A stretch of DNA of 64,000 bases from Myxococcus stipitatus. GTDB lineage: Bacteria; Myxococcota; Myxococcia; Myxococcales; Myxococcaceae. This document shows positions 10,304 to 49,600 of this stretch, piece after piece. Below the pieces are notes generated by a model. It saw only the letters and a program-made list of their open reading frames with translations. It was not told the DNA's origin and did not search any database. The stretch spans positions 310,001 to 374,000 of the forward strand of contig NZ_JAKCFI010000002.1 in NCBI RefSeq assembly GCF_021412625.1, written 5' to 3'. The number at the start of each line of letters is the position of its first letter. Within the stretch, counting starts at the first letter, position 1. The position numbers and the translations under genes are program-made.

Positions 10304-10711
10304 ATGGTTGGCATGTCCCAGACACCCTTCCACATCCTGCTCGTCGAGGATGAGCCGGTCATCCGGGAGCTGGTCCGTTCGATGTTGAGCGACGGCACCG
10401 TCGAAGTGGTGTGCGCGGCCAACGGGCTGGAGGGCCTGAAGCTGGCGCGCAGCCGTCCCTTCCAGCTCATCCTGATGGACGTGGTCCTGCCGCAGCTGGA
10501 TGGCATCTCCGCGTGTCGCATCCTGAAGAGCGACCCGACCACCGCGACGGTGCCGCTCTACATGCTCACCGCGAAGGCGAAGAAGTCGGACATGGAGAGC
10601 GCCACGCTGGCGGGGGCGGACGGCTACATCCACAAGCCCTTCCGGGGCGCGGAGCTGATGTCGCTGGTGGAGCGGCTGCGCGGGGCGCCGCCTCGCTCCG
10701 AACAGGGCTGA
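10304..10711 (+). CDS. Stand-alone response regulator (receiver domain)
   Basis: Single-domain CheY-like receiver protein of 135 residues. It has the acidic pair in LLVEDEP, the phospho-acceptor Asp in LILMDVVLPQLDG, the conserved Thr in YMLTAKA, and the Lys in YIHKPF, so it should be phosphorylatable. There is no output domain, so it must act by protein contact. The chosen ATG (MVGMSQ) has GGAG five bases upstream; an ATG nine bases later is a possible alternative. The cognate kinase is not in the window. Confidence 0.93.
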   Translation: MVGMSQTPFHILLVEDEPVIRELVRSMLSDGTVEVVCAANGLEGLKLARSRPFQLILMDVVLPQLDGISACRILKSDPTTATVPLYMLTAKAKKSDMESATLAGADGYIHKPFRGAELMSLVERLRGAPPRSEQG

Positions 10712-10724
10712 CTCGGGGGGCGCT

Positions 10725-11051
10725 TCAGGGCAGGCGCGGATGGAGGAAGCGCGCCAGGGCGATGAAGTCGTCCCAGTCCAGCGTGCCGAACTCCAGCGCG
10801 ACGCCGTCCGCCTCGCGCCGACGGATGTCGCAGGTCGTGACGATGTCGTGCTCGCCCGGCAGCGGCAGGCTGAGCGTGAGCTTCGTCTGGGTCTCGCCGG
10901 GGTGCGCGTGGAGGAACAGCCCCGCCATGGACAGGTCGCGGGCCTGCACCATGACGGTGCGCCCTGGGAGGATGACCTTCACGGGGAAGGCGCCGACGAC
11001 GCGCGGGTGGAAACGCTCGGCGATGTGTGGGCCGCCATGGGGTGTCTGCAC
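10725..11051 (-). CDS. PilZ domain protein
   Basis: Small c-di-GMP receptor candidate consisting of a PilZ domain only. An RFHPR segment near residue 13 resembles the RxxxR arm, and DLSMAGLFLH is the [DN]xSxxG-type motif, which together form the c-di-GMP-binding site. The GTG start is backed by AGGAG seven bases upstream. It converges with the response regulator (13 bp gap) and diverges from the type III cluster. Myxobacteria use many such proteins to control motility and development; the partner is unknown. Confidence 0.85.
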   Translation of the reverse strand: MQTPHGGPHIAERFHPRVVGAFPVKVILPGRTVMVQARDLSMAGLFLHAHPGETQTKLTLSLPLPGEHDIVTTCDIRRREADGVALEFGTLDWDDFIALARFLHPRLP

Positions 11052-11274
11052 CGGTTCCGCTCCTCTCCGAGCAACAGGGTGCGACAACTCTGAGGCTCCT
11101 GGACGTCGAGGCAAGTTTCCGTCCACCCGCCATGCGTCCCGGCGCATGGACGCTCCTCCCGGCTCCTGGAGCCTTTCGGGGGCGTGAGGCCTGGCCACAG
11201 TGGCGGGATTGCTGGGGTTTCTGTCTGGCACGCCCCCTGAAATGCCCCGGGCAACTCGACGCAGGAGGCCGCCC

Positions 11275-11745
11275 GTGGACCCCAACAACCGACTCCCCTC
11301 GCTCACCATCACCCAGACCGTCCCGCGACAGACGCCGCGCAACGACTTCGGCACGGTGCTGGCGCGCGCCGCGCACGAGGTGGTGCGTTCGGGGGCCGGG
11401 GTGGTGGGAGGGATGATTCCGGCGGGGCCCATCGTCAGCGCGGCGGTCTCCAGCGCGAAGACGACGGTGTCGACGGTGGTGCCCGTCGGCACCTCGACCA
11501 CCGTCTCTTCTCCGGCGTCCGCCACGGCGGCGGGAGGGGGCCTGGGCGTGTCGACGGGGAACGGCGACGCGTGGGACCTGCTGGAGGCGCAGAAGGCGAT
11601 GAGCGCCGAGGGGCAGAAGTTCAACGCGGCCTATCTCCACCTCCAGAACGAGATGCAGAAGGAGAGCCGCGAGCACAACGCGGTCTCCAACATCATGAAG
11701 GTCCGCCACGACTCGGCGAAGGCCGCCATCAACAACATCCGCTGA
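11275..11745 (+). CDS. Small type III-associated protein with needle-like C-terminus
   Basis: Not confidently recognised. It is a 156-residue protein opening the type III operon, with GTG start and AGGAGG six bases upstream. The N-terminal two thirds are rich in Thr, Ser, Val and Gly and look disordered. The last 60 residues form two amphipathic helices, ending SNIMKVRHDSAKAAINNIR, reminiscent of the C-terminal helix of SctF needle subunits (SN..K..D.A...I..). Position just before a rod-like gene and sctJ also fits needle or inner-rod genes. It is about twice the usual needle length, so it may instead be an atypical substrate. Confidence 0.6.
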   Translation: MDPNNRLPSLTITQTVPRQTPRNDFGTVLARAAHEVVRSGAGVVGGMIPAGPIVSAAVSSAKTTVSTVVPVGTSTTVSSPASATAAGGGLGVSTGNGDAWDLLEAQKAMSAEGQKFNAAYLHLQNEMQKESREHNAVSNIMKVRHDSAKAAINNIR

Positions 11746-11764
11746 AGGAAGGAGCTGGCGAGCC

Positions 11765-12241
11765 ATGAGCATGGACAAGGTGGGCCCGGTGGGCGGCGCG
11801 GGCAACGCGCCGTCGGTGGAGGCGGGCCGGGAGCGGTTCGACAAGGTGCTCGAGGAGTCCCCGCCGGCGTCGACGCGGGTGGGCCTGGAAGGGGGACCCG
11901 GGGGCGGCGCGACGCAGGCGGCTCCGGGTGTCGCTCGGGCGGAGTCGGTGGGCGCGGCCGCTTCGCCGGGTTGCATGGAGGCGAAGTCGGCGGGGCGAGT
12001 GGACTCGGTGGGGGCCGCGAGGGAGCAGCAGGCGGCGCGCATGCTGGACCGGGTGGGCCAGGCACAGAAGCGGCTGGACGGCATCCTGGAGCTGGCGGAG
12101 TCGGGGCGTTCGTTCTCGCCCGCGGAGCTGTTGTCGCTCCAGGCCCAGGTCTATCGAGCGAGCCAGGAGCTCGACCTCGCCGGCAAGGTCGTCGAGAAGG
12201 CCACCGGCGGCGTCAAGCAGGTGTTGCAGACCCAGGTTTGA
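11765..12241 (+). CDS. SctI-like inner rod protein (candidate)
   Basis: 158-residue protein between the needle-like gene and sctJ, the canonical place for the inner rod gene. The N-terminal ~75 residues are low-complexity Gly/Ala/Pro. The C-terminus (about 118-158) has a Leu/Gln-rich helix followed by SQELDLAGKVVEKATGGVKQ, matching the SctI/YscI pattern in which a helix ending near a conserved AGK motif terminates the protein. It would connect the export gate to any extracellular filament. Assignment rests on position and this C-terminal pattern. Confidence 0.65.
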   Translation: MSMDKVGPVGGAGNAPSVEAGRERFDKVLEESPPASTRVGLEGGPGGGATQAAPGVARAESVGAAASPGCMEAKSAGRVDSVGAAREQQAARMLDRVGQAQKRLDGILELAESGRSFSPAELLSLQAQVYRASQELDLAGKVVEKATGGVKQVLQTQV

Positions 12242-12254
12242 GGAGGGCCTCTCG

Positions 12255-13061
12255 ATGAAACTCTCTCCACGACATGGGCTGTTCCTTCTGTGGCTGGGCG
12301 CCGTGGGGTGTCGCGAGCGCATCCAGCATGGCCTCGACGAGCGGCAGGCCAATGAACTGCAAACCGTGCTCATCGAGCGGGGGCTCGAGGCGCGCAAGGT
12401 GCCCGAGTCGGGCAAGAAGCCGACCTGGGCCATCGAGGTGGCGGACGCGCGGGCCTCGGACGCGGTGCGGGTGTTGGCGGAGCTGGGGTTGCCGAGGCCG
12501 GCGGCGGAGGTGGGCTGCGACGTCTTCGGGGGGAGCGGGTTGGTGCGCACGCCAGTGGAGGAGGGGTTGTGTCGCGTGCGGGTGTTGGAGCGGGGCCTGG
12601 AGAAGACGCTCCAGGCGGTGGATGGCGTGTTGCTGGCGAGGGTCCACCTGGTGGTGCCCGCGCCGCCGCGGCCGGGGGTGGCCCCCGTCCCGTCCAAGGC
12701 CTCGGCGATGTTGCGCGTGACGCCCGGGAGCGCGGCGCGGGTGCGGCGGTCCGAGGAGACGTTGAAGGCGCTGCTGGCGGGTGGGGTGGAGGGGCTGTCC
12801 GCGCAGTCCGTGTCGCTGCTGGTGGACGAGGTGCAGGTGCGGGTGGAGGTCCCTCCGGCCGAGGAGCTGTCCACCCTGTCCCGGCTGCGATGGCTGCTGG
12901 GCGGGCTGGGGGTGGTGGTGACGGGGCTCGCGGCGGCGCTCGTCTGGGTGACGTTGCGGATGCGCACATATCGGGAGCAGTCCGCCGCCGCCGCGTCGGT
13001 CGCCGTGTCCGTGCCCGCGCGTCCCGTGGTGGCGCCGGCCGTGTCGCGCAAGGTGGCGTGA
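12255..13061 (+). CDS. sctJ: Type III secretion inner-membrane ring lipoprotein SctJ
   Basis: Ring-forming lipoprotein of the YscJ/PrgK/FliF family. A short signal peptide ends in a lipobox (LGAVGC, lipidated Cys19). Two ring-building domains follow: QANELQTVLIERGLEARKV, then RVRVLERGLEKTLQAVDGVLLARVHLVVP. A transmembrane helix sits near residues 213-235, with a short cytoplasmic tail. Length 268 fits SctJ and is far shorter than flagellar FliF, pointing to a non-flagellar system. GGAGGG lies seven bases before the ATG. Confidence 0.92.
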   Translation: MKLSPRHGLFLLWLGAVGCRERIQHGLDERQANELQTVLIERGLEARKVPESGKKPTWAIEVADARASDAVRVLAELGLPRPAAEVGCDVFGGSGLVRTPVEEGLCRVRVLERGLEKTLQAVDGVLLARVHLVVPAPPRPGVAPVPSKASAMLRVTPGSAARVRRSEETLKALLAGGVEGLSAQSVSLLVDEVQVRVEVPPAEELSTLSRLRWLLGGLGVVVTGLAAALVWVTLRMRTYREQSAAAASVAVSVPARPVVAPAVSRKVA

Positions 13062-13072
13062 GGGGCTCGGTG

Positions 13073-13558
13073 ATGGATACGACGCGAGTGGGACGGGTTC
13101 GGAGTCCGGCACGGAAGGCGAAGGCCACGGTGGCCGTGAGGACCGGGGTGGACCGGGACAAGACGCCGATCCGGCGTCCACCGATGCCACTTCCCCTGGA
13201 GCGGTATGCGCTGGTGGCGTGGGTGTTGGGGCGGGAGCGGGCGGAGCTGTTGCTGGAGGGGTTGGGGGCGAGGGACGCGGAGCGGGCGAAGGCTCACTTG
13301 CGATACCTCGCGTCGCTGCCCTCGCCACGACGGCAGGCGAAGGTCTCCGTGGAGTTCGGGGAGCGGGCCGATGCGGCCGCGAGGTTGAAGACCTTGATGG
13401 ATGAGGTGCCGGAGCCCCTGCGCAAGGAGGTGTTCCGGCGCCTGCCTCCCTATCACCGGAGCCTGTTTCCGGGGCGGCGGGTGGAAGCGGCGGACCCGTT
13501 GTCTCCCCCCGCGTTGGCCGTGCTCGCGGAGCGCTTGATTCGAGAAGCCACGCGCTGA
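13073..13558 (+). CDS. Uncharacterised type III cluster protein (161 residues)
   Basis: Not recognised. A basic, probably disordered N-terminus (about 1-40) is followed by a compact helical domain: LPLERYALVAWVLGRERAELLL, a central RQAKVSVEFGERAD segment, and RKEVFRRLPPYHRSLFPGR near the end. There is no signal peptide or membrane helix, so it is cytoplasmic. It lies between sctJ and sctQ, where SctK or SctL (sorting platform/stator) genes usually are, and might replace one of them. An in-frame GTG three bases upstream is an alternative start. Confidence 0.7.
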   Translation: MDTTRVGRVRSPARKAKATVAVRTGVDRDKTPIRRPPMPLPLERYALVAWVLGRERAELLLEGLGARDAERAKAHLRYLASLPSPRRQAKVSVEFGERADAAARLKTLMDEVPEPLRKEVFRRLPPYHRSLFPGRRVEAADPLSPPALAVLAERLIREATR

Positions 13559-13668
13559 CGCCCTGCCGGGGGCCGTCGTCACTGGATGCGAAGGACCTCA
13601 CGGGCGAGCCCTGGCTGGCGCCGTGCGTGGGGCTGTGTTGCCGAAGGTCTGTCGGGTCGGAGCTTTCG

Positions 13669-14814
13669 ATGAATCATGACACCGTGCCATCCATCACCCT
13701 CGAGGTGGCCCCGTTGCGTCGGTTGGGGATGCGTCGGCTGAGTCGTGCGCACCTCATGCTCATGGAGCGGCCACGGGTGGGCGAACTCGGGCGCGCGGCG
13801 TTGAAGTCGGTCTGCGAGGCGCTGGGGCGTGAGCTGGGGACTCCCGTGCATGCGGAGGCGCGGTTGCTGGACGCGGTGGTCTCGCCCAGGGGGGGACTGG
13901 CGTCGCCCGCCATCTTCGCGGTGTTCGAGCTGTCGGCGGTCGGCGGCATGGCGGTGCTGGAGCTCGACCCGGCTGGGGTTGTCGCGGGCCTGGAGCGGAT
14001 CGCTGGCGCGGGGGCGCGCCCTGGCGTGATGACGGAGCTCACCCGCCTGGAGGACGCGACGCTCGGATACCTGATGCTCGTGGGGCTCGCGGCGCTGCGT
14101 TCCCAGGCGGAGCTGCACGCGTTGCTGTCGCCTCGGCTCGTCAGCGTGACGATGAAGACGGAGGAGGTCCTGGCGCGGCTTCAGGGCCGGCAGGTGCTGG
14201 CGGCGGTGGAGCTGTCGCTGGCGGTGGGGCCTGTGCGCGCGGGAGGGCGGCTGCTGGTGCCCATCCACGTCCTCCAGACGGTGTTCCAGGGATTCGCCGT
14301 CGAGCGCCCGTCGGGGCGCGCTCCGGAGGTGCTCGCCGCGACGCTGGCGCTGCGCGCCTTCATGGGGCGCACGGGCCTGTCGGACGCGGCGTTGGAGTCG
14401 CTCTCGGAAGGGGACGTCGTGTTGCTGGAGGGGATGCGCCAGGAGGGGATGGGCTTCCTGGGCGCGGGGCGCCTGGTGGCGCGGGGCTTCGAGCTGCAGG
14501 GGGAGTTCCTCGCGGAGGGTTTCTCGCTGACGCGCGCGAGGACGCGCGCGCTTTCACAGGGGTCGGACATGGTGTCGACGAACGAAGGACTCGCGGAGAT
14601 GCCTCCGCTTCCGGTGGACGTGGAGGTGGAGTTGACGCGGGTGATGGTGCCGTTGTCCGAGCTGGCGTCGTTGAAGCCGGGCTCGTTGTTGCCGCTGCAC
14701 ATGAACGCCGTGCAGCCGGTGTTGCTGCGGGTGGGGGAGCGCGCGGTGGCCCGCGCCGAGCTGGTGGAAATCGAGGGCGAGGTCGGGGCCCGCATCCTGG
14801 CCCTGCTGCCATGA
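13669..14814 (+). CDS. sctQ: Type III secretion C-ring protein SctQ
   Basis: Cytoplasmic sorting-platform component of the YscQ/HrcQ/FliM-FliN family. The last ~65 residues form a SpoA domain (LPVDVEVELTRVMVPLSELA, then GSLLPLHMNAVQPVLLRVGE), which in this family dimerises and docks the export machinery. The N-terminal ~300 residues resemble the variable SctQ core. The ATG giving MNHDTVP was preferred because GGAG stands about eight bases upstream and conservation begins soon after. The stop overlaps the next start (ATGA). Confidence 0.88.
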   Translation: MNHDTVPSITLEVAPLRRLGMRRLSRAHLMLMERPRVGELGRAALKSVCEALGRELGTPVHAEARLLDAVVSPRGGLASPAIFAVFELSAVGGMAVLELDPAGVVAGLERIAGAGARPGVMTELTRLEDATLGYLMLVGLAALRSQAELHALLSPRLVSVTMKTEEVLARLQGRQVLAAVELSLAVGPVRAGGRLLVPIHVLQTVFQGFAVERPSGRAPEVLAATLALRAFMGRTGLSDAALESLSEGDVVLLEGMRQEGMGFLGAGRLVARGFELQGEFLAEGFSLTRARTRALSQGSDMVSTNEGLAEMPPLPVDVEVELTRVMVPLSELASLKPGSLLPLHMNAVQPVLLRVGERAVARAELVEIEGEVGARILALLP

Positions 14815-15248
14815 GGGGGCGGATGACGGACCTGTCTGGCCGTGTCTCCCCGCGCGCTCGATTGTTGGGGGCGGGAGCGCTCCTCGTCGGGCTGTCGGCC
14901 CTGGGGCCGCTGGGGGGGATGTCCGGAGTGATGGTCGCGCGGGTGGTGCTCGCGCTGGTGATGGTGGTCGGCGTGGGTGGGTGGTGGCTGCGCCGTGGCG
15001 CGGCGCGGACGCGGGTTCCGGTGGCCGAGCGGATGAAGGTCGTCTGCCGGGATGGGCTGTCGCCCCGGTGTGGCGTGGCGCTGGTGGAGGCGGAGGGCAG
15101 GAGCTTCCTGGTCACCTTCGGGGATTCGTTCGCGGCGGTCCATGCATTGGAGCCACGTGAGGAGGTGGCGCCGGTGGTGGTGGCCCAGGCGCGCCGGCCC
15201 CGACCGAGGTGGCGGATGCCACACGTGCCAGGCAGGGGGCGGTCATGA
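14811..15248 (+). CDS. FliO-like membrane protein
   Basis: Small membrane protein with two hydrophobic segments (about 17-33 and 38-58) and a short beta-rich domain (RMKVVCRDGLSPRCGVALV, then GRSFLVTFGD) typical of FliO, the assembly factor for the FliP(SctR) ring in flagellar export. Non-flagellar type III systems normally lack a FliO, so its presence between sctQ and sctR is notable. It is coupled to both neighbours by four-base overlaps. A start at the ATG 12 bases downstream is possible. Confidence 0.75.
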   Translation: MRGRMTDLSGRVSPRARLLGAGALLVGLSALGPLGGMSGVMVARVVLALVMVVGVGGWWLRRGAARTRVPVAERMKVVCRDGLSPRCGVALVEAEGRSFLVTFGDSFAAVHALEPREEVAPVVVAQARRPRPRWRMPHVPGRGRS

Positions 15249-15979
15249 CGCGTGCGTGGGGAGGGTGCATCGGGCTGCTCGCGCCGGCGGTCGCCGGAGC
15301 GGCCGAGGGCCCGTTGTCGAAGATGTCCTACGCGGGCAGCCCCCTGTCGATGATGGGGATGCTGGCGGTGATGTCCCTGCTGCCGTTCGCGGTGTTGATG
15401 CTGACGAGCTTCTCGAAGATGGCGGTCGTCCTGTCCCTGGCCCGGTCGGCCATGGGGACCCAACAGGCGCCTCCGACGCTGGTGTTGACGGGGCTCGCGG
15501 CGGTCCTGACGGGACACGTGATGGCCCCGGTGATGGAGCGGATGTACGACGAGGCCCTGCTGGCCTACGAGGTGTTGGAGACGGGCTCGGGTGCCCAGAT
15601 GCTCTCCGCGGGGGCGCGGGTCGCGGAACCGCTGCGGGAGTTCCTGGTGAAGCACGGGAGCATCGAGGAGCGGGAGCGCTTCGTGGACCTGGCTCGCGAG
15701 CTGCGTCCTCCCGAGGAGATGGAGGAGGTGGCGGAGACGGACCTCTTCGTGGTCATCCCCGCCTTCGTCGTCACCGAGCTGAAGGAGGCCTTCCAGATTG
15801 GCTTCCTCGTCTTCCTCCCGTTCCTGGTGCTCGACATGGTCATCGCGAACGTGCTGCTCGCGTTGGGGATGCAGACGTTGTCGCCGAGCCAGGTGAGCCT
15901 CCCCTTCAAGATCCTGCTCTTCGTCGCGGTGGATGGGTGGTCGCTGCTCGCGCGGGGACTCATCCTGGGTTACCGGTGA
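15245..15979 (+). CDS. sctR: Type III secretion export gate protein SctR
   Basis: Core export-gate subunit (FliP/YscR family) forming the SctRST channel in the inner membrane. The family-typical LLPFAVLMLTSFSKMAVVLS occurs near residues 48-67. FVVIPAFVVTELKEAFQIGF and FLPFLVLDMVIANVLLALGM mark the conserved C-terminal membrane pair. Length 244 is normal, with a short signal-like N-terminus as in FliP. ATG overlaps the preceding stop. Confidence 0.96.
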   Translation: MTRAWGGCIGLLAPAVAGAAEGPLSKMSYAGSPLSMMGMLAVMSLLPFAVLMLTSFSKMAVVLSLARSAMGTQQAPPTLVLTGLAAVLTGHVMAPVMERMYDEALLAYEVLETGSGAQMLSAGARVAEPLREFLVKHGSIEERERFVDLARELRPPEEMEEVAETDLFVVIPAFVVTELKEAFQIGFLVFLPFLVLDMVIANVLLALGMQTLSPSQVSLPFKILLFVAVDGWSLLARGLILGYR

Positions 15980-15983
15980 CGGC

Positions 15984-16253
15984 ATGACCCAGGACCTGTT
16001 GCTGTCCCTGGGCCGCGAGGCGCTGTTGCTGATGGTGCTGGCCTCGTTGCCGCCTATCGGCGCGAGCCTGCTGGTGGGCTTCCTGTCGAGTCTCTTCCAG
16101 GCGACGACGCAACTCCAGGAGAGCACGTTGTCGGTGGTGCCGAAGCTCGTCGCCGCGGTGGTGGCGCTGGTGCTGTCGGGACCGTGGATCGCCGCCCAGC
16201 TCACCCGGTTCACCCATCAGGTGTTGATGCTCATCGCCGAGGTGTCCGCATGA
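15984..16253 (+). CDS. sctS: Type III secretion export gate protein SctS
   Basis: 89-residue FliQ/YscS-family subunit of the export gate. It has two transmembrane helices (about 11-34 and 50-70) with the family pattern LPPIGASLLVGFLSSLFQA followed by QLQESTLSVVPKLVA. It assembles around SctR and SctT. It starts four bases after sctR and overlaps sctT by four, in the invariant R-S-T order. Confidence 0.96.
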   Translation: MTQDLLLSLGREALLLMVLASLPPIGASLLVGFLSSLFQATTQLQESTLSVVPKLVAAVVALVLSGPWIAAQLTRFTHQVLMLIAEVSA

Positions 16254-17032
16254 GCGTCGAATGGCTCGAGGCGTTGGGGCCACGCATCCTCGCGGTGGCG
16301 CTGTGCGCGACGCGGCTCCTGCCCGTGGCCTTCCTGTGTCCGCTGTTGGGAGGGCAGGCCACGCCCACGACGGTGAGATTGGGGCTCGTGTTGGCCCTCT
16401 CGCTGTTCCTTCATGTCGAGGCCGGCGTCGAGCTGCCGGCCCCGGTGGAGTCCCTCCTGGTCCTGGGCGGGCTGCTGGGGCGGGAGCTGCTCTACGGGGT
16501 GTCGATGGGGATGATCGCCGCGCTCCCGTTCGACGCGGCCCGGATGGGGGGCCGCTTCATCGACCTCTTCCGGGGCACCTCGGCGGAGGCGAGCCTGCCC
16601 GTGGCGGGGAGCAGGGAGTCGGCGACGGGGGATGGTCTCCATCAGCTCCTCGTCGCGCTGGTGGTCTCGGGGCCGTTGTTCCCGCTGGTCATCGGCGGGC
16701 TGGTTCGCGGGTTCGGGGTGGTGCGGCTCGGCGCGTTCGTGCCCACGGAAGCGGCGGCGTTGCATGTCGTCATGCTCGCGGGTGGCGCCGTGGCCACCGG
16801 GCTGGCCCTGGGCGCACCGGTGGCCGCCGCCACGCTGGCGGTGGATTGCTTCCTGGGCATGGCGTCGCGCGCGGCGCCCCAGATGGGCCTCCATGAACTG
16901 GGGGCGCCGTCGAGAATCATGGGAGGGGGCGTGGTGCTCTGGCTGGGCGTGGGGTGGCTGTGTGAGCGGCTCTTGGTGGAGGTGTCGTCCACCGAGGGCG
17001 CGCTCGCCCTGCTCGGGACGATGGGGCGATGA
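16250..17032 (+). CDS. sctT: Type III secretion export gate protein SctT
   Basis: FliR/YscT-family membrane protein of 260 residues with six or so hydrophobic helices. Family features include the N-terminal RLLPVAFLCPLLGG, the GRELLYGVSMGMIAALPFDAAR region and a loop with GRFIDLFRGT. It completes the SctRST channel. Unlike some systems it is a separate gene, not fused to SctU. Start overlaps the sctS stop. Confidence 0.95.
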   Translation: MSVEWLEALGPRILAVALCATRLLPVAFLCPLLGGQATPTTVRLGLVLALSLFLHVEAGVELPAPVESLLVLGGLLGRELLYGVSMGMIAALPFDAARMGGRFIDLFRGTSAEASLPVAGSRESATGDGLHQLLVALVVSGPLFPLVIGGLVRGFGVVRLGAFVPTEAAALHVVMLAGGAVATGLALGAPVAAATLAVDCFLGMASRAAPQMGLHELGAPSRIMGGGVVLWLGVGWLCERLLVEVSSTEGALALLGTMGR

Positions 17033-18075
17033 GCGGCGAGAAGACAGAGCAGCCGTCGCCCAAGCGACTGCGCGAGGCGCGTCGGAAGGGGCGGATTCCG
17101 CGGAGCCGGTTGCTGTCCTCCAGCGTCGTCACCCTGGGCGGGGTGCTCGGGTTCCTCTCCGGAGCGCCGTCGAGCCTCGCGAGCCTCCAGGAGTGGACGG
17201 CGCGGCTGTTCCTCGAACAGCGCATGGACGGGGCCTGGGAGGAAGCTGGTTGGCTCTGGTTGCGGCTGTGTGGTCCCGGGCTCGGCGGGGCGCTGGTGGC
17301 CTCGATGCTGGTCTCGGTCGCCACGGTGGGCTTCGAGTCGAGCCCCACCCACGTGTTGCCGAAGCTCGAGCGCATCAATCCCCTGGCGGGCGCGAAGCGG
17401 TTGTTCAGCCTGCGCTCCCTGCGGGAGCTGGCCACGGCGCTCGCGGTGGTGGCCGTGGTCGCGCTGCTCGCATGGCGCGAAGTGGAGGCGTTGGGGGCCG
17501 AGGTCCTGCGAGCGTCCTGGCTGGAAGGGGCGCGGGGACTTCCCCGGTTGTTGGAGCCGCTGGAGGCACTCGCCGTCCGGACCGCCTGGGTGCTGTTCGT
17601 GCTCGGCGTCGTCGACTACGTGCTCGCCCGCCGTCGCCACGTGCGCGAGCTCATGATGACGCGCGAGGAGCTGAAGCGGGAGTTCCGGGAGAGCGAGGGG
17701 GACCCGCGTCACAAGGGGCAGCGACGGGCCTTGCACCGCCAATTGGCGCAGGGCGGTCCGGCACGAGGGGTGCAGAAGGCCACTGCCGTGGTCGTCAATC
17801 CCACGCACATCGCGGTCGCGCTCCGCTACGACGCCGGGGAGTGTGAGGCGCCCTATCTCGTGGCCAAGGCTCGGGAGGACGAGGCGCTGGCGCTTCGAGA
17901 AGAGGCGCGTCGGCTGGGGGTGCCCGTCGTCCGGGACATCCCCCTGGCGCGCAGCCTCGTCCACTACGACGTCGGCGAGCCCATCCCCGAGGAACTCTAT
18001 CAGGCGGCGGCCGTCGTCCTCCGCACGGCGATGGAGACGCGGGACGCGGACGACCATCCACGGAGACAGACGTGA
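17029..18075 (+). CDS. sctU: Type III secretion specificity switch protein SctU
   Basis: FlhB/YscU-family protein of 348 residues. It begins with the family hallmark EKTEQPSPKRLREARRKGR. Four membrane helices follow (to about residue 205), a linker with SEGDPRHKGQRR, and the autocleavage motif NPTH within VVVNPTHIAVALRYD. Autocleavage between Asn and Pro controls substrate switching in this family, and the complete motif predicts that it is functional here. Overlaps on both sides indicate coupled translation with sctT and sctV. Confidence 0.96.
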   Translation: MSGEKTEQPSPKRLREARRKGRIPRSRLLSSSVVTLGGVLGFLSGAPSSLASLQEWTARLFLEQRMDGAWEEAGWLWLRLCGPGLGGALVASMLVSVATVGFESSPTHVLPKLERINPLAGAKRLFSLRSLRELATALAVVAVVALLAWREVEALGAEVLRASWLEGARGLPRLLEPLEALAVRTAWVLFVLGVVDYVLARRRHVRELMMTREELKREFRESEGDPRHKGQRRALHRQLAQGGPARGVQKATAVVVNPTHIAVALRYDAGECEAPYLVAKAREDEALALREEARRLGVPVVRDIPLARSLVHYDVGEPIPEELYQAAAVVLRTAMETRDADDHPRRQT

Positions 18076-20153
18076 CGCACGCGTTGAGGCGGATGTTGTC
18101 GAGGGCCCGGAACTCGGCGGATGTGGTGCTCGCGGTGGCGATGGCCGCCGTGCTGGGGGCGCTCATCATCCCCTTGCCGGCGTGGCTGTTGGACGCGGGG
18201 TTGGCGGTGAACCTGGCGGCGGCGGTGGCGCTGCTGGTGGCCGCGCTGCGCGCGAAGGACGCGCTCCAGGTGACGTCCTTCCCCACGCTGTTGTTGTTCA
18301 CCACGCTGTTCCGGTTGTCGCTCAACGTGTCGTCGACGCGGCTGGCCCTGGCGGAGGGACACGCGGGAGAGGTCATCCAGGCGTTCGGTGAGTTCGTGGT
18401 CCGGGGGGACTACGTGGTGGGCGCGGTGGTGTTCGCCATCCTCACGCTCGTGCAGTTGCTGGTGGTGACGAAGGGGGCCGAGCGGGTCGCGGAGGTCTCC
18501 GCCCGTTTCACCCTGGACGCGATGCCGGGCAAGCAGATGTCCATCGACGCGGACCTGCGCGCGGGCGCCATCGACCAGGCCCAGGCCCGCCGCCGCCGCA
18601 GGGACCTGGAGCGTGAGTCCCAGATGTTCGGGGCCATGGATGGCGCGATGAAGTTCGTGAAGGGGGACGTCATCGCGGGCCTCGTCATCGTCGCCGTCAA
18701 CCTGCTGGGCGGCTCGCTCATCGGCGTGGTGCAGGGCGGCATGTCGTTGTCGGAGGCCGCGTCGACCTTCGCGCTCATCGCGATTGGTGACGGGCTGGTC
18801 TCCCAGGTGCCCTCGCTGTGCATCGCGGTGGCGGCCGGGCTCGTCGTCACGCGGGTGTCCGCGGAGAAGGAGGATGTGTCGCTCGGCGCGGAGATTGGCG
18901 GACAATTCTTCGGAGAGGCCCGGACGCTCTGGGTGGTCGCGGGGCTCTGCGCGGCGCTGGCCCTCATGCCGGGCATGCCACACGTGACGTTCCTCGTGCT
19001 CGCGGCCGGGCTGGGGGGCCTGGGGTACGCGCTGACGGGAGGCACCGTGGCGGGGGCCGAGTCGGAGCCGGGAGGGGCGCGGCCACCTGCCTCGGAAGGA
19101 GCGGGGAAGGAAGGGGCGCCGCCAGACAGCGCGGCCGCCGCGGTGGGCGTGTCGCCGCTCACGCTGGACCTCGCCCCGGACCTGACGGCGCTGGCCCAGG
19201 AGGATGGAGGCGCCTTCGTCCACAAGACGTTGAACGCGGTTCGCGACGAGCTGTTCTTCGAGCTCGGGGTTCGTGTCCCCGGGGTCCGCGTGAGGACCCA
19301 TGCCGCCTATCTGTCGGCGGGGGAGTACCGCATCCTGGTGGACGAGGTCCCGGCGGGAGGAGGACGGCTCCTGGCAGGCGCGCTCTATGCCCTGGCTCCA
19401 CCGGAGGAGCTCGCCTTCCTCCAGGTGAAGGCCGAGCCCGCGGTGGAGCCCATGACGGGGCGGGCCATCAGCCGCGTCTTCGAATCAGGCCGGGCCGCGT
19501 TGGAGCTGGCGCAGGTCCAGGTCCTGCGTGCCGGGGAGTTGCTCGCTGACCACCTGCGAGGCGTGCTGCGGCTGCGCGCGGCCGAACTGCTGGGCCTCCA
19601 GGACGTGCAGGGGTTGCTCGAGGGGTTGGAGGCCCGGAGCCCGGCGCTCGTGAAGGAGGCGCTCCAGAAGGTGCCGCTGCCGCTGCTGACGGATGTCCTG
19701 CGCAGGCTGCTCCAGGAGGGCGTCAGCATCCGCGACATGCGGGCCATCCTGGAGGCGCTCGTCGCGCCCACCACCGAGGGGGACGCCGCCGCGCTCGCGG
19801 AGCGCTGCCGGCAGGCCCTGCGGCGCTACCTCAGCCACAAGTTCGCTCCGAGCGGGCCGCTCTACGCGTACCTCGTGGACCCGGAGGTGGAGGAGGTGCT
19901 GCGGAGCGCGGGGCCACGAGGCGCCGCTCCGGATCCGACGCGGGTGGCGGAGATCCTCGAGGGCGTCAGACAGGTGGCCTCGGGAGGGCGCGCCGTCCTG
20001 CTCACCGCTCCCGACGTCCGACGCTCGCTGCGCAAGCTCTGCGAGGGCGCGTTCCCGGACGTGGCCGTGCTCACCTATGGGGAGCTGGAGGGCGGGCTGC
20101 AGGTCCGTCCCATCGGGCGGCTGTCCCCGGTATCCGTGGGACACGGCGCCTGA
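18072..20153 (+). CDS. sctV: Type III secretion export gate protein SctV
   Basis: FlhA/YscV (FHIPEP) family protein of 693 residues, normal length. The N-terminal half carries about eight membrane helices with conserved loops (LFRLSLNVSSTRLALAEG; TLDAMPGKQMSIDADLRAG). The C-terminal ~350 residues are the cytoplasmic nonameric substrate-docking domain, including LPLLTDVLRRLLQEGVSIRD. The linker between them (about 330-365) is Gly/Ala/Pro-rich. It is the last gene of the cluster and converges with the IHF-like gene, so ATPase, secretin and translocon genes must be elsewhere if they exist. Confidence 0.96.
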   Translation: MTHALRRMLSRARNSADVVLAVAMAAVLGALIIPLPAWLLDAGLAVNLAAAVALLVAALRAKDALQVTSFPTLLLFTTLFRLSLNVSSTRLALAEGHAGEVIQAFGEFVVRGDYVVGAVVFAILTLVQLLVVTKGAERVAEVSARFTLDAMPGKQMSIDADLRAGAIDQAQARRRRRDLERESQMFGAMDGAMKFVKGDVIAGLVIVAVNLLGGSLIGVVQGGMSLSEAASTFALIAIGDGLVSQVPSLCIAVAAGLVVTRVSAEKEDVSLGAEIGGQFFGEARTLWVVAGLCAALALMPGMPHVTFLVLAAGLGGLGYALTGGTVAGAESEPGGARPPASEGAGKEGAPPDSAAAAVGVSPLTLDLAPDLTALAQEDGGAFVHKTLNAVRDELFFELGVRVPGVRVRTHAAYLSAGEYRILVDEVPAGGGRLLAGALYALAPPEELAFLQVKAEPAVEPMTGRAISRVFESGRAALELAQVQVLRAGELLADHLRGVLRLRAAELLGLQDVQGLLEGLEARSPALVKEALQKVPLPLLTDVLRRLLQEGVSIRDMRAILEALVAPTTEGDAAALAERCRQALRRYLSHKFAPSGPLYAYLVDPEVEEVLRSAGPRGAAPDPTRVAEILEGVRQVASGGRAVLLTAPDVRRSLRKLCEGAFPDVAVLTYGELEGGLQVRPIGRLSPVSVGHGA

Positions 20154-20172: not shown

Positions 20173-20526
20173 TCAGAGCCCCGTGCCGGTGCTGCCCGGG
20201 CTCTTGCTCTCCGGGGAGCCCGGCAGCTCGCTCTGGGCCTGTTGCGGGGCAGGGCGGTTGACGCGGTCGCGCAGCTCCTTGCCGGTGCGGAACAGCAGGC
20301 CCCGCTTGGGCTTCACCGGGATGACGTCTCCCGTCTTGGGGTTGCGGCCCTGGTAGCCCTGGTAGTGCTTGACGTGGAAGGCACCGAGACCGCGGATCTC
20401 GATGTTCTCGCCGCGACAGAGGGCATCCTTCATCGACTCGAAGATCGTCTCGATGGTGGCCTCAGCCTGCTTCTGCGTCACGCCCCGCTTGGCCACGAGG
20501 ATGTTGATCAGATCGGACTTGAGCAT
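20173..20526 (-). CDS. HU/IHF family DNA-binding protein
   Basis: DNA-bending protein of the HU/IHF family, closest in pattern to an IHF subunit. The N-terminal dimerisation helices (MLKSDLINILVAKRGVTQKQ) are followed by IEIRGLGAFHVKHYQGYQG and RNPKTGD, the tip of the DNA-intercalating arm, and the terminal RTGKELRDRVN. A further ~27-residue Pro/Ser/Gly tail follows the usual C-terminus. The ATG giving MLKSD has GGAG upstream; upstream in-frame codons encode no conserved sequence. Role: chromosome architecture and assisted promoter activation. Confidence 0.93.
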   Translation of the reverse strand: MLKSDLINILVAKRGVTQKQAEATIETIFESMKDALCRGENIEIRGLGAFHVKHYQGYQGRNPKTGDVIPVKPKRGLLFRTGKELRDRVNRPAPQQAQSELPGSPESKSPGSTGTGL

Positions 20527-20593
20527 CGGACGCTCCCGCAAACCCGGTGACCCCTTCGCAACAGGGCACTCTGGCCCGTGGTCGAATCCGGAA

Positions 20594-20621
20594 AACATAA
20601 CAGAACGCATCGACACTGCAA
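20594..20621 (-). promoter_or_regulatory. Candidate promoter for the IHF-like gene
   Basis: On the reverse strand, TTGCAG and TATGTT are 16 bp apart in the only AT-richer part of the 125 bp between the YihY-type gene and the IHF-like gene. The -10 ends about 68 bases before the start codon. The -35 match is weak. Confidence 0.35.
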
Positions 20622-45398: not shown

Positions 45399-45815
45399 GC
45401 GTCACGGGGGAGTCGACGAGCCCTGTCCCGTGATTGCCCCTGGATGTCAGGCCCACTTCGCCCGTGTCCTGGAGACGGGCCCGTCGCCGCAGGCGATGGG
45501 GCGCTCTATTTCAAATGGAGCTGTATGGCACTGTCCGACGTGCCCTGGTGCACTCCGTGAACACTGGCTTGAAAGTCAAAAGCCGTCACGGCGAGGTCAC
45601 GGGAGCGAGTTGTGCGTTGCGTCTCGTGTGAAGCGTCGCCGAGGGCTTGTTCGAAGGGCTGAGCGCTGCGCGTACTCCTGTCGGAGCTGTACTCATACAT
45701 GGTGCCCGGAGCTTCCCTTCGTTGGAGTATCCGGGGTGCGAAGTGACTCCGGGCCATGAGCGCGATGGCTCGGGGCGGTTTGGTCGGGGAACGGTGCATC
45801 GTGTATGGTTATGAG
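45399..45815. other. Island-edge intergenic region, no confident gene
   Basis: About 417 bases with visibly lower and more even base composition than the flanking core genes. It holds a short TTGA-AAG-TCAA inverted repeat near 45569 and a promoter candidate at its end. A 128-codon open frame crossing it has no recognisable features and was not accepted. No tRNA or integrase site was found to explain insertion. Confidence 0.45.
45780..45809 (+). promoter_or_regulatory. Candidate promoter for the protease-STAND cassette
   Basis: TTGGTC and TATGGT are 18 bp apart. The -10 ends six bases before the ATG at 45816, so transcription would start at or next to the start codon and produce a leaderless message. 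Confidence 0.4.
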
Positions 45816-46655
45816 ATGGATAGAACCGAGACTGGAGAACGCCTCCATCCTGGCTCCCCGCGCCAAATCGATTGGGAGGAGTTGCCGGACAAGTCTCTCT
45901 GGACGACGCTCCTGGGGGAGCGCTCAGCGCACGCCGAGCTGTCCCCGACCTCTTCCCATCGTGGCGGCGGTAGCGACTGGGATGCGCCATTTGATTTGCG
46001 AGTCGCGTGTCCCCGTGCCATGGACATCGAGAAGCTCTGGGCGCTGAACCAGACGAAGCCTCATCCGGAAGTCGCTGCGGCCCCCTCCGGCCTGACCCCG
46101 GTCCTGCTCGCACATACTGTCACGGCATTTCCCAATGATGGCTTCCTCCCGGGAAACGTCTTTGCGCTGGGGTATGAGTTCGTTCTGCACGATCAGTCGC
46201 GAGCGGCCACGATTGCGGTCGCTCCGTCCGACGAAGTGCTGCGCATCGCCAGTATTCACCAGAAGGTCTCGTTCGGCGTGGATCTCGGAGGGAAATGGCA
46301 TTACCCCACCGCCTCGGGAGGAGGAGGTGGCGAGGTCCTGGAGTCACTCGGCGGTGCGACGATCTCCTGCTCCACGGACCAGCGATATGCGTTCGACGTC
46401 ACGCTGGATGCCTCTCTCCGCAAGGTGGTCGGAGCGCCGGTCGGAGTAGGAGGGGCTCTGTGGAAGTTGTATCGCCAGAACGAATCGCTGGATCGCCCCT
46501 TCACGCTGCTGCAAACGCTGCTCCTACCAAAGGAGACCGTGGAGCTGAGGTGCACCGTGAAGACATGGGTGATGCGAGCGGGCTTCCTGGGGACTCGATG
46601 GGGAGCCGTGTATTGGCCTTATGCTGATCAGGACTTTGCCGTCATGCTCAGGTGA
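45816..46655 (+). CDS. Uncharacterised first protein of the protease-STAND cassette
   Basis: Not recognised. A 279-residue soluble protein; no signal peptide or membrane helix. The first ~75 residues are polar and probably flexible (DRTETGERLHPGSPRQ). The rest looks beta-rich, with strands such as VLLAHTVTAFPNDGFLPGN, FALGYEFVLHD, VSFGVDLGGKWH and FDVTLDASLRKVVG, a Gly5 run near the middle, and a Trp/Tyr-rich end (TRWGAVYWPYADQDFAVML). It ends six bases before the protease-STAND gene. It could be an effector, ligand sensor or chaperone for that protein; no function is claimed. An upstream in-frame ATG (45756) is possible. Confidence 0.72.
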   Translation: MDRTETGERLHPGSPRQIDWEELPDKSLWTTLLGERSAHAELSPTSSHRGGGSDWDAPFDLRVACPRAMDIEKLWALNQTKPHPEVAAAPSGLTPVLLAHTVTAFPNDGFLPGNVFALGYEFVLHDQSRAATIAVAPSDEVLRIASIHQKVSFGVDLGGKWHYPTASGGGGGEVLESLGGATISCSTDQRYAFDVTLDASLRKVVGAPVGVGGALWKLYRQNESLDRPFTLLQTLLLPKETVELRCTVKTWVMRAGFLGTRWGAVYWPYADQDFAVMLR

Positions 46656-46661
46656 GCCCCT

Positions 46662-49600
46662 ATGGACGTAAAGTCGCAGCGGTTGCTGAAGCGCATGGTT
46701 GCACGCGTCGATCTTCCGCCTGACCAGAAGCATCGGCCGGATGTTCCGCCCGGCGCTCCTCGGCCGAATGGGACGGCCTTCCTGGTGGGGCCGGACTTGG
46801 CGGCCACGGCGCTCCACGTTCTCGAGGGGCATACGACTGTTTCCCTACGCTTCACTGAGACAGGAGAAGAGAGGACCGCGGACCTCATCTGGAAGCATCC
46901 TTGGGGACATGACGTGGCAGTCCTCCGATTGAGGGCGCGTTGTGATTGGCCAAGGTTGGCCTGGGGGGAGGGGACGTTTGCTGGGGATGGCTGGGCTTCT
47001 TTCGGCTATCCAGCGGGGCTCTTCGATGGCCACCTGTTGAGAAACGAGAAGGTCGCGGACCCCGAGCACCTGATTGCCCAGTACAACCAGCGATTCCTTC
47101 ATCTGGAGACGCGGTTGGCCAAGGAGAGCCTCGGGGGATTCAGCGGGGCGCCGGTCGCAGTCGACGGATGCGTCGTTGGCATCATCACGGCGCAACTCCA
47201 GCGCAGACTGTTCGACTCTCAGTCCGCCGATCCCACTGTTTCGCCGCCATCTCCGCAATGGCGTCTTTCGCTTGATACTCTATATGCGTTGCCCGTGACG
47301 CTGTTGAACGAATGCTTCGCGCTTGCCGGGGAGGCTCGGAAGCCCCGACCGCGGGGGCTGGAGCAGCTTCTCGCGCTCTTTGATGATCCTCGGTGCGAGG
47401 GGCAGTGGGTGGTGCCGACATTGTCGAATCTCGATACCGGTGCGCAGATGCCCGCGACTGAGTTCGCGTCGCGGGTCTGGCAGTCGCCTCGGGCCCTGTT
47501 CGGGGTCGAGGCGCCGAGTGGCTCCGGAAAGTCGACGTTGATCGAGTTCCTCGGACGTCATGCCATGCAGGCGAATGTGGCCGGCCCAATCGACCTGGTA
47601 CCGCTCTATGTCAATGCGGCCTCCTGGGTTGACGCTCCAGACAGTGACGAGATTTTTCATTTCGCGGTAAGGCAACGCGCGCGGCGAAGGGGACGCGGCT
47701 GCGAGCTGATCAATCCCGGCTTCTATACCCGATGGCCTGATGAATTCGGAATCCGGTTCATGGTGTTGGTCGAGGGGCTTGATGAACTCGACCTGAAGCA
47801 GCAAAGGGCGTTCGAGCCGCATCTGCAGACCTTCGCGAGCAATGTCGGGCGAGGCGATGCGCTGGTCCTGGTGACACGCTCGCGAACGAAAGTTGTGTCG
47901 CGAACACTCGCGAATGAGCTCGCCTGGCATTCAATCCTGCCATTCAGCGACGAGCAGCAGCGACAGGCCGTCGAACGTTGGCAGACTGCCGTATCCAGGG
48001 ATGGCGGGCGAGAAGTGCTCAGCGCGTTGCCGGACACGATACGTCAACACCCCCAGTGGCTGGCGGTCGCGCTGGCTGCCGCGTCCGGTTCGGCGGCGAG
48101 GTCACGCCCCGTTCCTGCGCATGTTACCGCGCTGTATTCGGAATATGAGCGGCACGCGTTACCGGAATATGCACTCGAGGATACAGCGGAAGCCTCGTTT
48201 CAACGTGCGGCATTGCAGACTTTCGCGTTGTGGTCGATTCAGAATCGTCGCACGGACATCCAGCTCTTCAAACGCGAACGCTTGGGCGTTCTCGCCGCGC
48301 GGCTGGATGAGTCGCCCGCGCGTGCTCAAACAGGATTTGGCCGTCTGATGGACGACCTCGCTGCTCGTCGGAATCTGCTGCAAAAGGATGGAGATCGCGT
48401 CGTCTGGAGGCATGCCTCCATCCAGGCGTATTTCGCGGCGAGCGCTCTCGTCTCCTCCAACGAAGAGGTGCGCAAGGCCCAGGCGTTCAACGATCAAGAC
48501 CCGGTGGATGTCCTCCTAGGGGATGTGACTTACAGCGAGAACGAGGTGAAGCTGTTTGCCGCGTCGATGTTGTGTGACGCGGACCGGGAGCGGTTGTTGA
48601 GCCTTGCTGGTTCAAGTCCGAAGGCCCGAAAGCTGGTGGCGGCCTCCGCTCCGTATGGATTTGAGCTCGCGTCGCATGGCCCGGCGTTGGCGAGTTCGCT
48701 CGTCTCTGATCTGCTCGGTCGACGTCAGGGCAAGTCGGCCTGCTCATTGCTGTGGGAACTCTATGATGGGGCGATGCCTGACGAACTCAGGTGCATGGTC
48801 AGTATCGGCAGGGATGCGACGGATGCGCTGGCGGACGCGTTCCATGGACTTCAGGACGTGTACTTCCTGGCGCGAGTCTTCTCGTCGGCACTGGCTCATG
48901 TGAGAGCATTCGATGCGCTCGAGAGCGTGGCCGCTGACTCCGCGTCTCACGCCGTCGTGAGGACGCAGGCGCTGCGTGCCTTGTTTGCCGCGGGGGCGGA
49001 GAATCATGTCAGGAATCTCTTGGAAAGGGTATCCTTCGTCGGCCCCATGAGGCGGATTGCTGAAGCGGCATGCCGTGTGCTGGTGCCCGGGTTGGCATCT
49101 CGTCTTGGTCTCGGCCCAGTGGATGATTTTCGCCGCTCGGAGTGTGGAGGCGTGTTCTGGCTGGCGGTGGCGGCGGCCGAGGAGAACCGTCTCGCGGATG
49201 TCGTTGAACAGGTCGTGCGTGGCGGCTTCTCGCTTTCAGATGTCGAGGCGTTGCTCTCAGTCGCGGAGCGCTACGAGATGCTGGATGCGCCATGCCTCAG
49301 CCAGATCGAGGGTGCTGTCTCCGTTTCCACCCGACTTTTGGCTCATGCTCGTGAGCGCCAGTCCATCAGGGCCAACCCGCTCAACCTGCTGCATGAAGAG
49401 GGAGAGCCGCCGAACACCGCCAGGCTGGATGCCGCATGTCTGAACATCCATGCCTGGGCGGAGGGGCGCATGATCGGGAAGCTTCGTTTCGTGGTGGAGA
49501 AGGAATCCACGCCGGAGTTGCGCGCCCACGCGGTCAAGGGGCTCGCCAACATCGGGGCGGCACGGACACTCAGGTCGCTGGGGCAATCGGGCGTGTATCC

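What the first reader, a model, noticed from the sequence alone, without database searches (positions are those of the whole stretch)
11275..20153. Type III export core without ATPase, secretin or translocon genes
SctJ, Q, R, S, T, U, V are complete and tightly coupled, but SctN, SctC, a typical needle and translocators are missing from this cluster. Established: Myxococcus xanthus has an atypical, needle-lacking type III-like system used with a Tad-like apparatus in contact-dependent prey killing. This cluster may be that system or a relative.
Basis: partly seen in the sequence, partly recalled or inferred. Interest (0 to 1): 0.62.

Follow-up and report, generated by a model that had tools for sequence, protein, structure and literature searches.

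The report
Myxobacterial short type III exporter
This is an intact, old protein-export machine of myxobacteria that lacks its own energy-supplying enzyme and outer-membrane ring, but it carries a gene resembling the needle subunit that these "needleless" machines are said to have lost.

Summary
In detail: window 11275-20153 is an intact 11-gene type III export operon without SctN, SctL, secretin or translocator. It is not the predation system T3SS*. The counterpart of T3SS* is a second locus of this genome (C1:553-574 kb), which holds the genome's only SctN and SctL. The window cluster is the "short" myxobacterial type III locus; that it equals T3SS(2) of M. xanthus is inferred.

Two points go beyond what I found in print. 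(1) The first gene (sF), a paralogue at the head of the long locus and a variable set beside the long SctV form a family whose C-terminal ~40 residues match needle subunits (SctF) at profile level. sF itself stays below Pfam's cut-off, so it is needle-like, not a filed member. (2) The ATPase acts, if at all, in trans: 27 of 27 searched genomes of the genus have two gates and one SctN, and five of five single-contig genomes with a short but no long gate carry an unlinked sctL-sctN pair over 1 Mb away.

Best mechanism: the gate exports rod- and needle-like subunits into the periplasm, powered by the shared SctL-SctN pair. Export, polymer and sharing are inferred.

The parts
11275..11745 (+). sF: needle-like first gene (156 aa from the GTG at 11275; the frame opens at 11200)
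   Evidence: 29 members at the head of short loci. PF09392 E=0.033, 14.8 of 29.4 bits; third of four hits of the genome scan, E=0.31; profile comparison with canonical needles 73-89%, six controls at most 0.8%
11765..12241 (+). sI: SctI-like inner rod subunit (158 aa)
   Evidence: PF17001 E=2.2e-4, below the cut-off
12255..13061 (+). SctJ inner-ring lipoprotein
   Evidence: PF01514 6.6e-16; TIGR02544 1.3e-35, below its cut-off
13073..13558 (+). sX: unnamed 161-aa helical protein between SctJ and SctQ, possibly FliG-like
   Evidence: FliG_N in 3 of 14 members, best E 0.016; AlphaFold pLDDT 79.7; the seven best Foldseek rows are flagellar C-ring, FliG or FliF-FliG entries, all at E>2; VIA Z up to 4.4 for these, 5.0 for TrpR
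13669..14814 (+). SctQ, C-ring / sorting platform
   Evidence: PF01052 7.1e-19; TIGR02551 1.8e-28, 100.4 of 100.8 bits
14823..15248 (+). FliO-like protein
   Evidence: PF04347 E=8.4e-4, below the cut-off; FliO in both M. xanthus T3SSs is in print (passages of PMC12403147)
15245..15979 (+). SctR export gate
   Evidence: PF00813 2.5e-64; TIGR01102 over its cut-off
15984..16253 (+). SctS export gate
   Evidence: PF01313 3.5e-25
16250..17032 (+). SctT export gate
   Evidence: PF01311 3.6e-35
17029..18075 (+). SctU switch protein with an NPTH motif (recalled as the autocleavage site)
   Evidence: PF01312 3.4e-91; sequence
18072..20153 (+). SctV export gate (start 18072 GTG or 18093 ATG)
   Evidence: PF00771 688 bits at C2:328150-330090; TIGR01399 5.2e-199, below its cut-off

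Best explanation
The cluster is the vertically inherited short type III export locus of the Myxococcales. It makes an inner-membrane ring (SctJ), a C-ring (SctQ, perhaps linked by the FliG-like sX) and an export gate (SctRSTUV, assembled with FliO). Its first substrates are the needle-like sF and the rod-like sI, encoded directly ahead of sctJ, which build a short rod or needle in the periplasm. Energy comes from the proton-motive force plus the single SctL-SctN ATPase pair encoded elsewhere: in the long locus in this genome, as an orphan pair in genomes without the long gate. Shown: gene content, order, conservation, purifying selection, absence of SctN and SctL from the cluster, no T3SS secretin or SseC over the cut-offs, the unlinked pair, and a needle-like profile match. 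Inferred: that sF is exported and polymerises, that the pair serves this gate, that the product stays in the periplasm or borrows another secretin.
For: Locus kind: order F-I-J-(X)-Q-O-R-S-T-U-V recurs in the relatives fetched; short SctV is one clade (21 rows from 20 loci); Nei-Gojobori dN/dS 0.065-0.623 in 33 of 33 gene comparisons with three relatives. Needle: six-frame PF09392 scan of the 10.1-Mb genome, four hits at E<=10, the best three being the long-locus sF paralogue (0.047), the long SctI (0.11) and sF (0.31). Order scan: 51 of 145 genomes, 64 hits at E<=0.1, 45 of 64 within 6.3 kb of a SctV or SctN. A profile of six needles from other phyla finds 56 of 5,880 myxobacterial frames (5,564 distinct) at E<=1, 50 of them this family; 26 of 29 sF, window sF 0.031; 0 hits in reversed and 0 in shuffled frames. 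hhalign to canonical needles: 73.3% (18 of the 29 short members), 88.6% (18 short, 6 long F1), 94.6% (slot family); six controls at most 0.8%. Best PDB sequence for the slot profile (7.5e-5) and the mixed C-terminal profile (0.4) is 7y6c_F, whose stretch matches PF09392 at 1.9e-14. ATPase in trans: one SctN in the genome; 27 of 27 searched genomes of the genus have two gates, one SctN; five of five single-contig genomes with a short but no long gate have the non-flagellar SctN 1.0-2.4 Mb away with SctL beside it; in three of them the other gate is flagellar-like, in G015 and G018 there is no other gate.
Against: sF alone is under the Pfam cut-off and at E=0.31 in the genome scan; 7 of 14 control genomes also give PF09392 hits at E<=10 and 1 of 14 at E<=0.1. 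94 of 145 genomes give no hit at E<=0.1, though 120 of 145 have a gate. The short-only C-terminal HMM finds no canonical needle below E=0.47 among 8,951 frames; its best non-myxobacterial hit (0.16) is SctI-like. Full-length sF profile finds no needle in the PDB. More sF members match Pfam HrpF (12 of 29) than the needle model (8 of 29), none strongly. About 90 extra N-terminal residues; AlphaFold gives one long C-terminal helix, no hairpin, and Foldseek finds nothing. The six canonical needles were picked partly through hits of my own slot profile, which favours similarity; four of six pass Pfam's cut-off, two fall just short. Abby and Rocha searched for SctF in these loci and report none, and list the ATPase among the genes of the short locus. 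Nothing shows that sQ binds the shared SctL; the orphan pair could have another use.
Confidence: 0.6

Rival explanations
1. The short gate exports on proton-motive force alone, and SctN serves only the long gate (T3SS*).
For: SctN and SctL were found in none of the short loci fetched. Flagellar export can run without its ATPase (recalled). SctN of this genome sits in the long locus.
Against: Complete genomes whose only gate is the short one keep one SctL-SctN pair (G015, G018). Gate and SctN are both present in 114 and both absent in 22 of 145 genomes; the 9 exceptions are drafts of 320 or more contigs (comparison).
Confidence: 0.25
2. sF is not needle-like; it is another early substrate (second rod protein, regulator or effector) with a helical C-terminus.
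For: Sub-threshold scores, long N-terminal extension, no hairpin in the model, best non-myxobacterial hit of the short-only HMM is SctI-like.
Against: Myxobacterial SctI, SctO and sX profiles do not match needles, and the short C-terminus does not match SctI (0.8%); shuffled and reversed frames give no hit; long-locus relatives pass Pfam's cut-off (three matches in two genomes; 30.4 bits).
Confidence: 0.2
3. The cluster is a decaying relic with no function.
For: It was first called a relic (as told in PMC3459982). T3SS(2) is reported as not involved in killing and its genes go down with prey (PMC10196010). One relative (L042, G092) lacks SctQ between J and O.
Against: All 11 window frames are intact, gene order is kept between families, dN/dS is below 1 in 33 of 33 comparisons.
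Confidence: 0.05
4. The cluster is itself part of the Tad-linked predation machine T3SS*.
For: Homologous gate, same genome.
Against: A separate long locus with SctN, SctL and TPR genes fits T3SS* better; SctV clades differ; T3SS(2) is reported as not involved in killing; family f3 genomes have the short gate without a long one.
Confidence: 0.04

Closest known systems
Short 'Myxo' NF-T3SS locus (Abby and Rocha 2012, PMC3459982; section 9 and passages read)
   Same: Cystobacterineae, conserved gene order, export gate, SctJ, inner rod, no secretin, vertical inheritance
   Different: They list the ATPase among its genes and say SctF was lost; here SctN lies outside the short locus in the genomes looked at, and the first gene is needle-like
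T3SS(2) of M. xanthus, MXAN_5643-5654 (named in PMC10196010; passages read)
   Same: Second, smaller T3SS cluster of a Myxococcus genome; 12 locus tags against 11 genes here
   Different: Identity with the window cluster is inferred; no M. xanthus record with locus tags could be compared
T3SS* of M. xanthus, MXAN_2434-2464 (PMC12075869, PMC10433427; passages read)
   Same: Homologous gate, J, Q, I, FliO-like gene and an sF paralogue in its counterpart here
   Different: Long locus with SctN, SctL, YscO-like, FliK-like, a FliG_C-like match below the cut-off, sigma factor, TPR genes and a second SctU C-terminus; acts in prey lysis
Canonical injectisome
   Same: F-I-J start of the operon (order recalled from SPI-1), gate and C-ring
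   Different: No secretin or SctD over the cut-offs, no SseC match, no own ATPase
Flagellar export apparatus
   Same: FliO-like gene; possible FliG-like gene between the FliF and FliM/N homologues
   Different: SctV lies outside the clade that I take for FlhA

Membership tests
Short Myxo NF-T3SS locus | SctV in the clade of short loci | tested here: met
   21 rows from 20 loci, SH-aLRT 100 (quick search)
Short Myxo NF-T3SS locus | Gate, SctJ and inner rod in conserved order, no secretin | tested here: met
Short Myxo NF-T3SS locus | ATPase gene as part of the locus, as in Abby and Rocha's list | tested here: not met
   SctN only at C1:560244; outside the short locus in the relatives fetched too. 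The paper's 'locus' may have counted unlinked genes; this is my reading, the figure was not held
T3SS(2), MXAN_5643-5654 | Sequence identity with those locus tags | not testable with these tools
   No annotated M. xanthus record in the collections used
T3SS* (predation) | SctN and SctL in the cluster, SctV in the long clade | tested here: not met
T3SS needle subunit PF09392 (for sF) | Score over the curated cut-off of 29.4 bits | tested here: not met
   14.8 bits; 8 of 29 members match at E<=1, best 0.014; relatives in the long locus do pass
T3SS needle subunit PF09392 (for sF) | Family-level profile match to canonical needles | tested here: inconclusive
   hhalign 73.3% for short members with controls under 1%, but the short-only HMM reaches only E=0.47 for a canonical needle
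T3SS needle subunit PF09392 (for sF) | Helical hairpin fold and polymer | tested here: inconclusive
   One long helix, mean pLDDT 61.9, no PDB match
Canonical injectisome | Secretin, SctD and translocators | tested here: not met
FliG (for sX) | FliG domain match or fold | tested here: inconclusive
Flagellum | SctV/FlhA in the flagellar clade | tested here: not met

The most novel reading that the evidence does not exclude
Neither myxobacterial type III system is needleless. The short one assembles an sF filament over an sI rod in the periplasm; the long one makes needle-like filaments from its F1 gene and from a variable gene set between TPR chaperone genes, which could pass through the Tad/Kil secretin. 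The two gates share one SctL-SctN module, so one ATPase complex serves two export machines.
Probability: 0.35. Interest if true: 0.82.

Novelty: new variant of a known kind. Interest (0 to 1): 0.58.

Why it matters
Papers of 2012 to 2025 describe these systems as lacking a needle, and models of how Myxococcus lyses prey rest on that (passages of PMC3459982, PMC12075869, PMC10433427, PMC10849154). Needle-like genes at the head of both loci give a direct candidate for the missing conduit and a simple deletion test. The retained, unlinked SctL-SctN pair is a natural experiment on whether one ATPase module can serve two export gates. Both bear on how injectisomes arose from flagella, since Abby and Rocha place these loci at the base of the non-flagellar systems.

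Tried and rejected
Tried without result. Full-length sF profile against PDB sequences: best hits a haemolysin component and a mitoribosomal protein, E 0.38 and 3, taken as chance. sX profile against the PDB: two chance-level hits. Foldseek with the sF model: nothing at E<=10. The 71-residue slot protein of the window's own genome has no needle match in Pfam, nor has the slot protein of G048, although the slot profile finds canonical needles at 5.7e-7 and 2.8e-4. Slot members were found in 9 of the 14 long loci that cover that stretch (G000, G048, G075, G076, G085, G086, G088, G137, L071) and in 5 not (G059, G092, G104, G126, L133). M. xanthus itself: the one genome scan kept 80 of 590 loci, among them Corallococcus and Myxococcus sp. 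RHSTA-1-4 but no M. xanthus record. Thiery et al. 2022 is not held; I know it only through other papers. PMC10433427 lists a SctD in T3SS*; the SctD model gave no match in the long locus.

Considered and rejected. 'Relic'. 'Chance' (E-values). 'The inner-membrane hat structure of Kaplan et al. 2022': they saw none in 95 M. xanthus tomograms (passages of PMC9380563). sX as SctK: no match found, which does not exclude it.

Rows chosen or dropped. SctV tree: 61 rows by a typed locus list, out of 122 matches; L012, L018, L022 and L046 were on my list but had no match of 550 residues in one piece; L028 is in twice; L074, a Deltaproteobacteria MAG, joins the long clade at 96. SctN tree: 29 of 31 rows, two duplicates left out; L126, G028 and L095 are long branches, five orphan rows have odd composition. 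Needle profile test: of the 53 'family' frames three were added by hand, one of them (G137) after seeing the hit list; it matches PF09392 at 0.0079; the six non-family hits are two frames of G104 that are in the file twice, one SctI frame and one other. Anchors were copied by hand; the 19 unplaced hits lie on contigs without a listed gate or SctN.

Not found in print (open-access library only): a needle-like gene in the myxobacterial loci, or the unlinked sctL-sctN pair.

Corrected on re-check: flagellar nature of the second gate of G013, G014 and G024 was assumed and is now tested; Pfam scores of two of the six canonical needles were added.
Full report
What is there. The window lies at C2:310001-374000 of a 10.1-Mb assembly of 47 contigs. 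Eleven frames follow each other on the plus strand between 11275 and 20153: a 156-residue first gene (sF), SctI-like, SctJ, a 161-residue gene (sX), SctQ, a FliO-like gene, SctR, S, T, U and V. Four junctions overlap by four bases. The GC-by-codon-position profile supports these frames. There is no ATPase, stator, secretin or translocator among them.

The rest of the genome. PF00771 finds two export gates, the window one and one at C1:571564-573579. The second lies in a long locus of which I named 24 frames: sF paralogue, TPR gene, sigma factor, SctI, SctJ, a 711-residue frame with a FliG_C match below the cut-off, SctL, SctN, YscO-like, FliK-like, SctQ, FliO, SctR, S, T, U, a second SctU C-terminus, TPR genes flanking a variable slot, SctV, and some unnamed (Pfam). 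FliI/YscN has one match over its cut-off, in that locus, and FliH/SctL likewise one. T3SS-secretin matches are all under the cut-off and elsewhere, SseC has none, and the SctD model gives 14 sub-cut-off matches, none in either locus. FliG_C gives one place in the whole genome at E<=1, in the long locus between SctJ and SctL, at E=0.068.

Which known system. The literature describes two M. xanthus clusters: T3SS* MXAN_2434-2464, used with the Kil/Tad apparatus in prey lysis, and T3SS(2) MXAN_5643-5654, not involved in killing (passages). Abby and Rocha described a long and a short 'Myxo' locus (section 9 read). The window cluster has the gene set of the short one. In a tree of 61 SctV/FlhA rows the 21 short rows (20 loci) form one clade (SH-aLRT 100), the 14 long rows another (99), and the presumed flagellar and canonical injectisome rows lie apart, except that one Deltaproteobacteria MAG joins the long clade (quick search, no bootstrap). 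The nearest named relative is Myxococcus sp. RHSTA-1-4, 86% identical over 674 columns. The genomes searched bear family codes only; I take f1 for Myxococcaceae and f3 for Anaeromyxobacteraceae, which no call shows.

Conservation. The order F-I-J-(X)-Q-O-R-S-T-U-V recurs in families f1 and f3 and in one genome of f7. Where sF is not seen (L026, L038, L040, L069, L070) the contig or the match ends before it. sX was found in 14 loci, the window included; O has no BLAST match in some; in L042 (G092) O follows J directly, so Q and X are missing there. Nei-Gojobori dN/dS of the 11 genes against three relatives is 0.065 to 0.623, 33 of 33 below 1. Neighbours that I read as a response regulator, a PilZ-like gene and an HU-like gene were found in 11, 13 and 14 of 15 relatives' loci.

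The first gene. sF has 29 members at the head of short loci and a paralogue at the head of the long locus (34% over 182 residues, 2e-19). Its last ~40 residues resemble needle subunits. Single-sequence scores are weak: PF09392 E=0.033, 14.8 bits against a cut-off of 29.4. Five results converge. (a) Six-frame scan of the whole genome with PF09392: the best three of four hits at E<=10 are the long-locus paralogue, the long SctI and sF; but 7 of 14 control genomes also show hits at that threshold. (b) Over 145 genomes of the order: 64 hits at E<=0.1 in 51 genomes, 45 of 64 within 6.3 kb of a SctV or SctN; the other 19 lie on contigs for which no gate or SctN was listed; three hits pass the curated cut-off, in two genomes; 1 of 14 controls rings. 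Most of the placed hits belong to the long locus. (c) A profile of six needle genes of other phyla, four of them over Pfam's cut-off and two just under, puts this family at the top of 5,880 frames: 50 of 56 hits at E<=1; reversed and shuffled frames give none. (d) Profile-profile probabilities of 73 to 95% against these needles, six controls at 0.8% or lower. (e) The top PDB sequence for the slot profile (7.5e-5) and for the mixed C-terminal profile (0.4) is one needle fragment. Against it: the short-only HMM alone reaches a canonical needle only at E=0.47 and a SctI-like frame at 0.16; no fold support and an N-terminal extension of about 90 residues. So the long-locus members are the firmer needle relatives, and sF is tied to needles mostly through them (97.1% between the two profiles; A4 there includes six long F1 rows). 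In the long locus the slot between TPR genes holds one to four such proteins of about 70 to 270 residues in 9 of 14 loci. Near the N-terminus F-x-x-x-hydrophobic is kept in 29 of 29 sF (26 L, M or V; 3 F) and 12 of 12 SctI; it resembles the gate-recognition motif of early flagellar substrates (recalled).

The ATPase. In the window's genus 27 of 27 searched genomes have two gates and one SctN. Across 145 genomes of the order, 114 have gate and SctN, 6 a gate only, 3 SctN only and 22 neither; the nine exceptions are drafts with 320 or more contigs. Five single-contig genomes carry a short but no long gate (G013, G014, G015, G018, G024). In five of five the non-flagellar SctN lies 1.0 to 2.4 Mb along the contig from the short gate, with SctL beside it. 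In G013, G014 and G024 the second gate is closest to flagellar rows and a second SctL-SctN lies near it. G015 and G018 have no other gate, so the pair has no other type III gate to serve. G042 has no long gate but keeps sctL-sctN-sctO on another contig; its SctN lies inside the clade of long-locus SctN (support 100/99), the other orphans do not, so the orphan label needs two to three changes on the tree. This suggests that the L-N module is kept when the long gate goes. That it drives the short gate is inference.

sX. A confident helical model (pLDDT 79.7) whose seven best Foldseek rows are flagellar C-ring, FliG or FliF-FliG entries, at E above 2; second-look Z up to 4.4 for these but 5.0 for TrpR; FliG_N in 3 of 14 members. 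It sits where fliG sits in flagellar operons (recalled). I call it possibly FliG-like.

Verdict. New are the needle-like family in both loci and the trans-encoded ATPase module. Neither was found in print in the searches made.

Noticed in passing
G000:C1:553-574 kb (L003, L004): The long locus has a gene order close to a flagellar operon (FliF, FliG-like, FliH, FliI, FliJ-like, FliK-like, FliM/N, FliO, FliP...; order of flagellar genes recalled), a sigma factor, a stand-alone SctU C-terminal domain and a variable slot of needle-like genes between TPR genes.
   Followed up: partly
10313-10711 (+), 10725-11108 (-), 20173-20616 (-): A response-regulator-like, a PilZ-like and an HU-like gene (names read from sequence) flank the short locus in 11, 13 and 14 of 15 relatives' loci.
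   Followed up: partly
L029, L059 (G126) and G125, G127: Genomes of 2.1-2.7 Mb in the same family show only a long-type or similar gate (about 750 bits) with SctN and no second gate; only G126 was fetched.
   Followed up: no
L042:4495-5640 (G092): Short locus in which the FliO-like gene follows SctJ directly, without SctQ and sX.
   Followed up: no
45500-50600: Stretch of lower GC (0.62 against about 0.71) with frames 45756-46655, 46662-49685 (1007 aa) and 49676-50614 and weak codon-position bias; perhaps a recent arrival.
   Followed up: no
L076:1635-2333 (-), L091:2934-4103 (+): Other T3SS loci (Lampropedia, a Verrucomicrobia MAG) also hold larger proteins with a weak needle-like C-terminus, neighbouring each other in the latter.
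   Followed up: no
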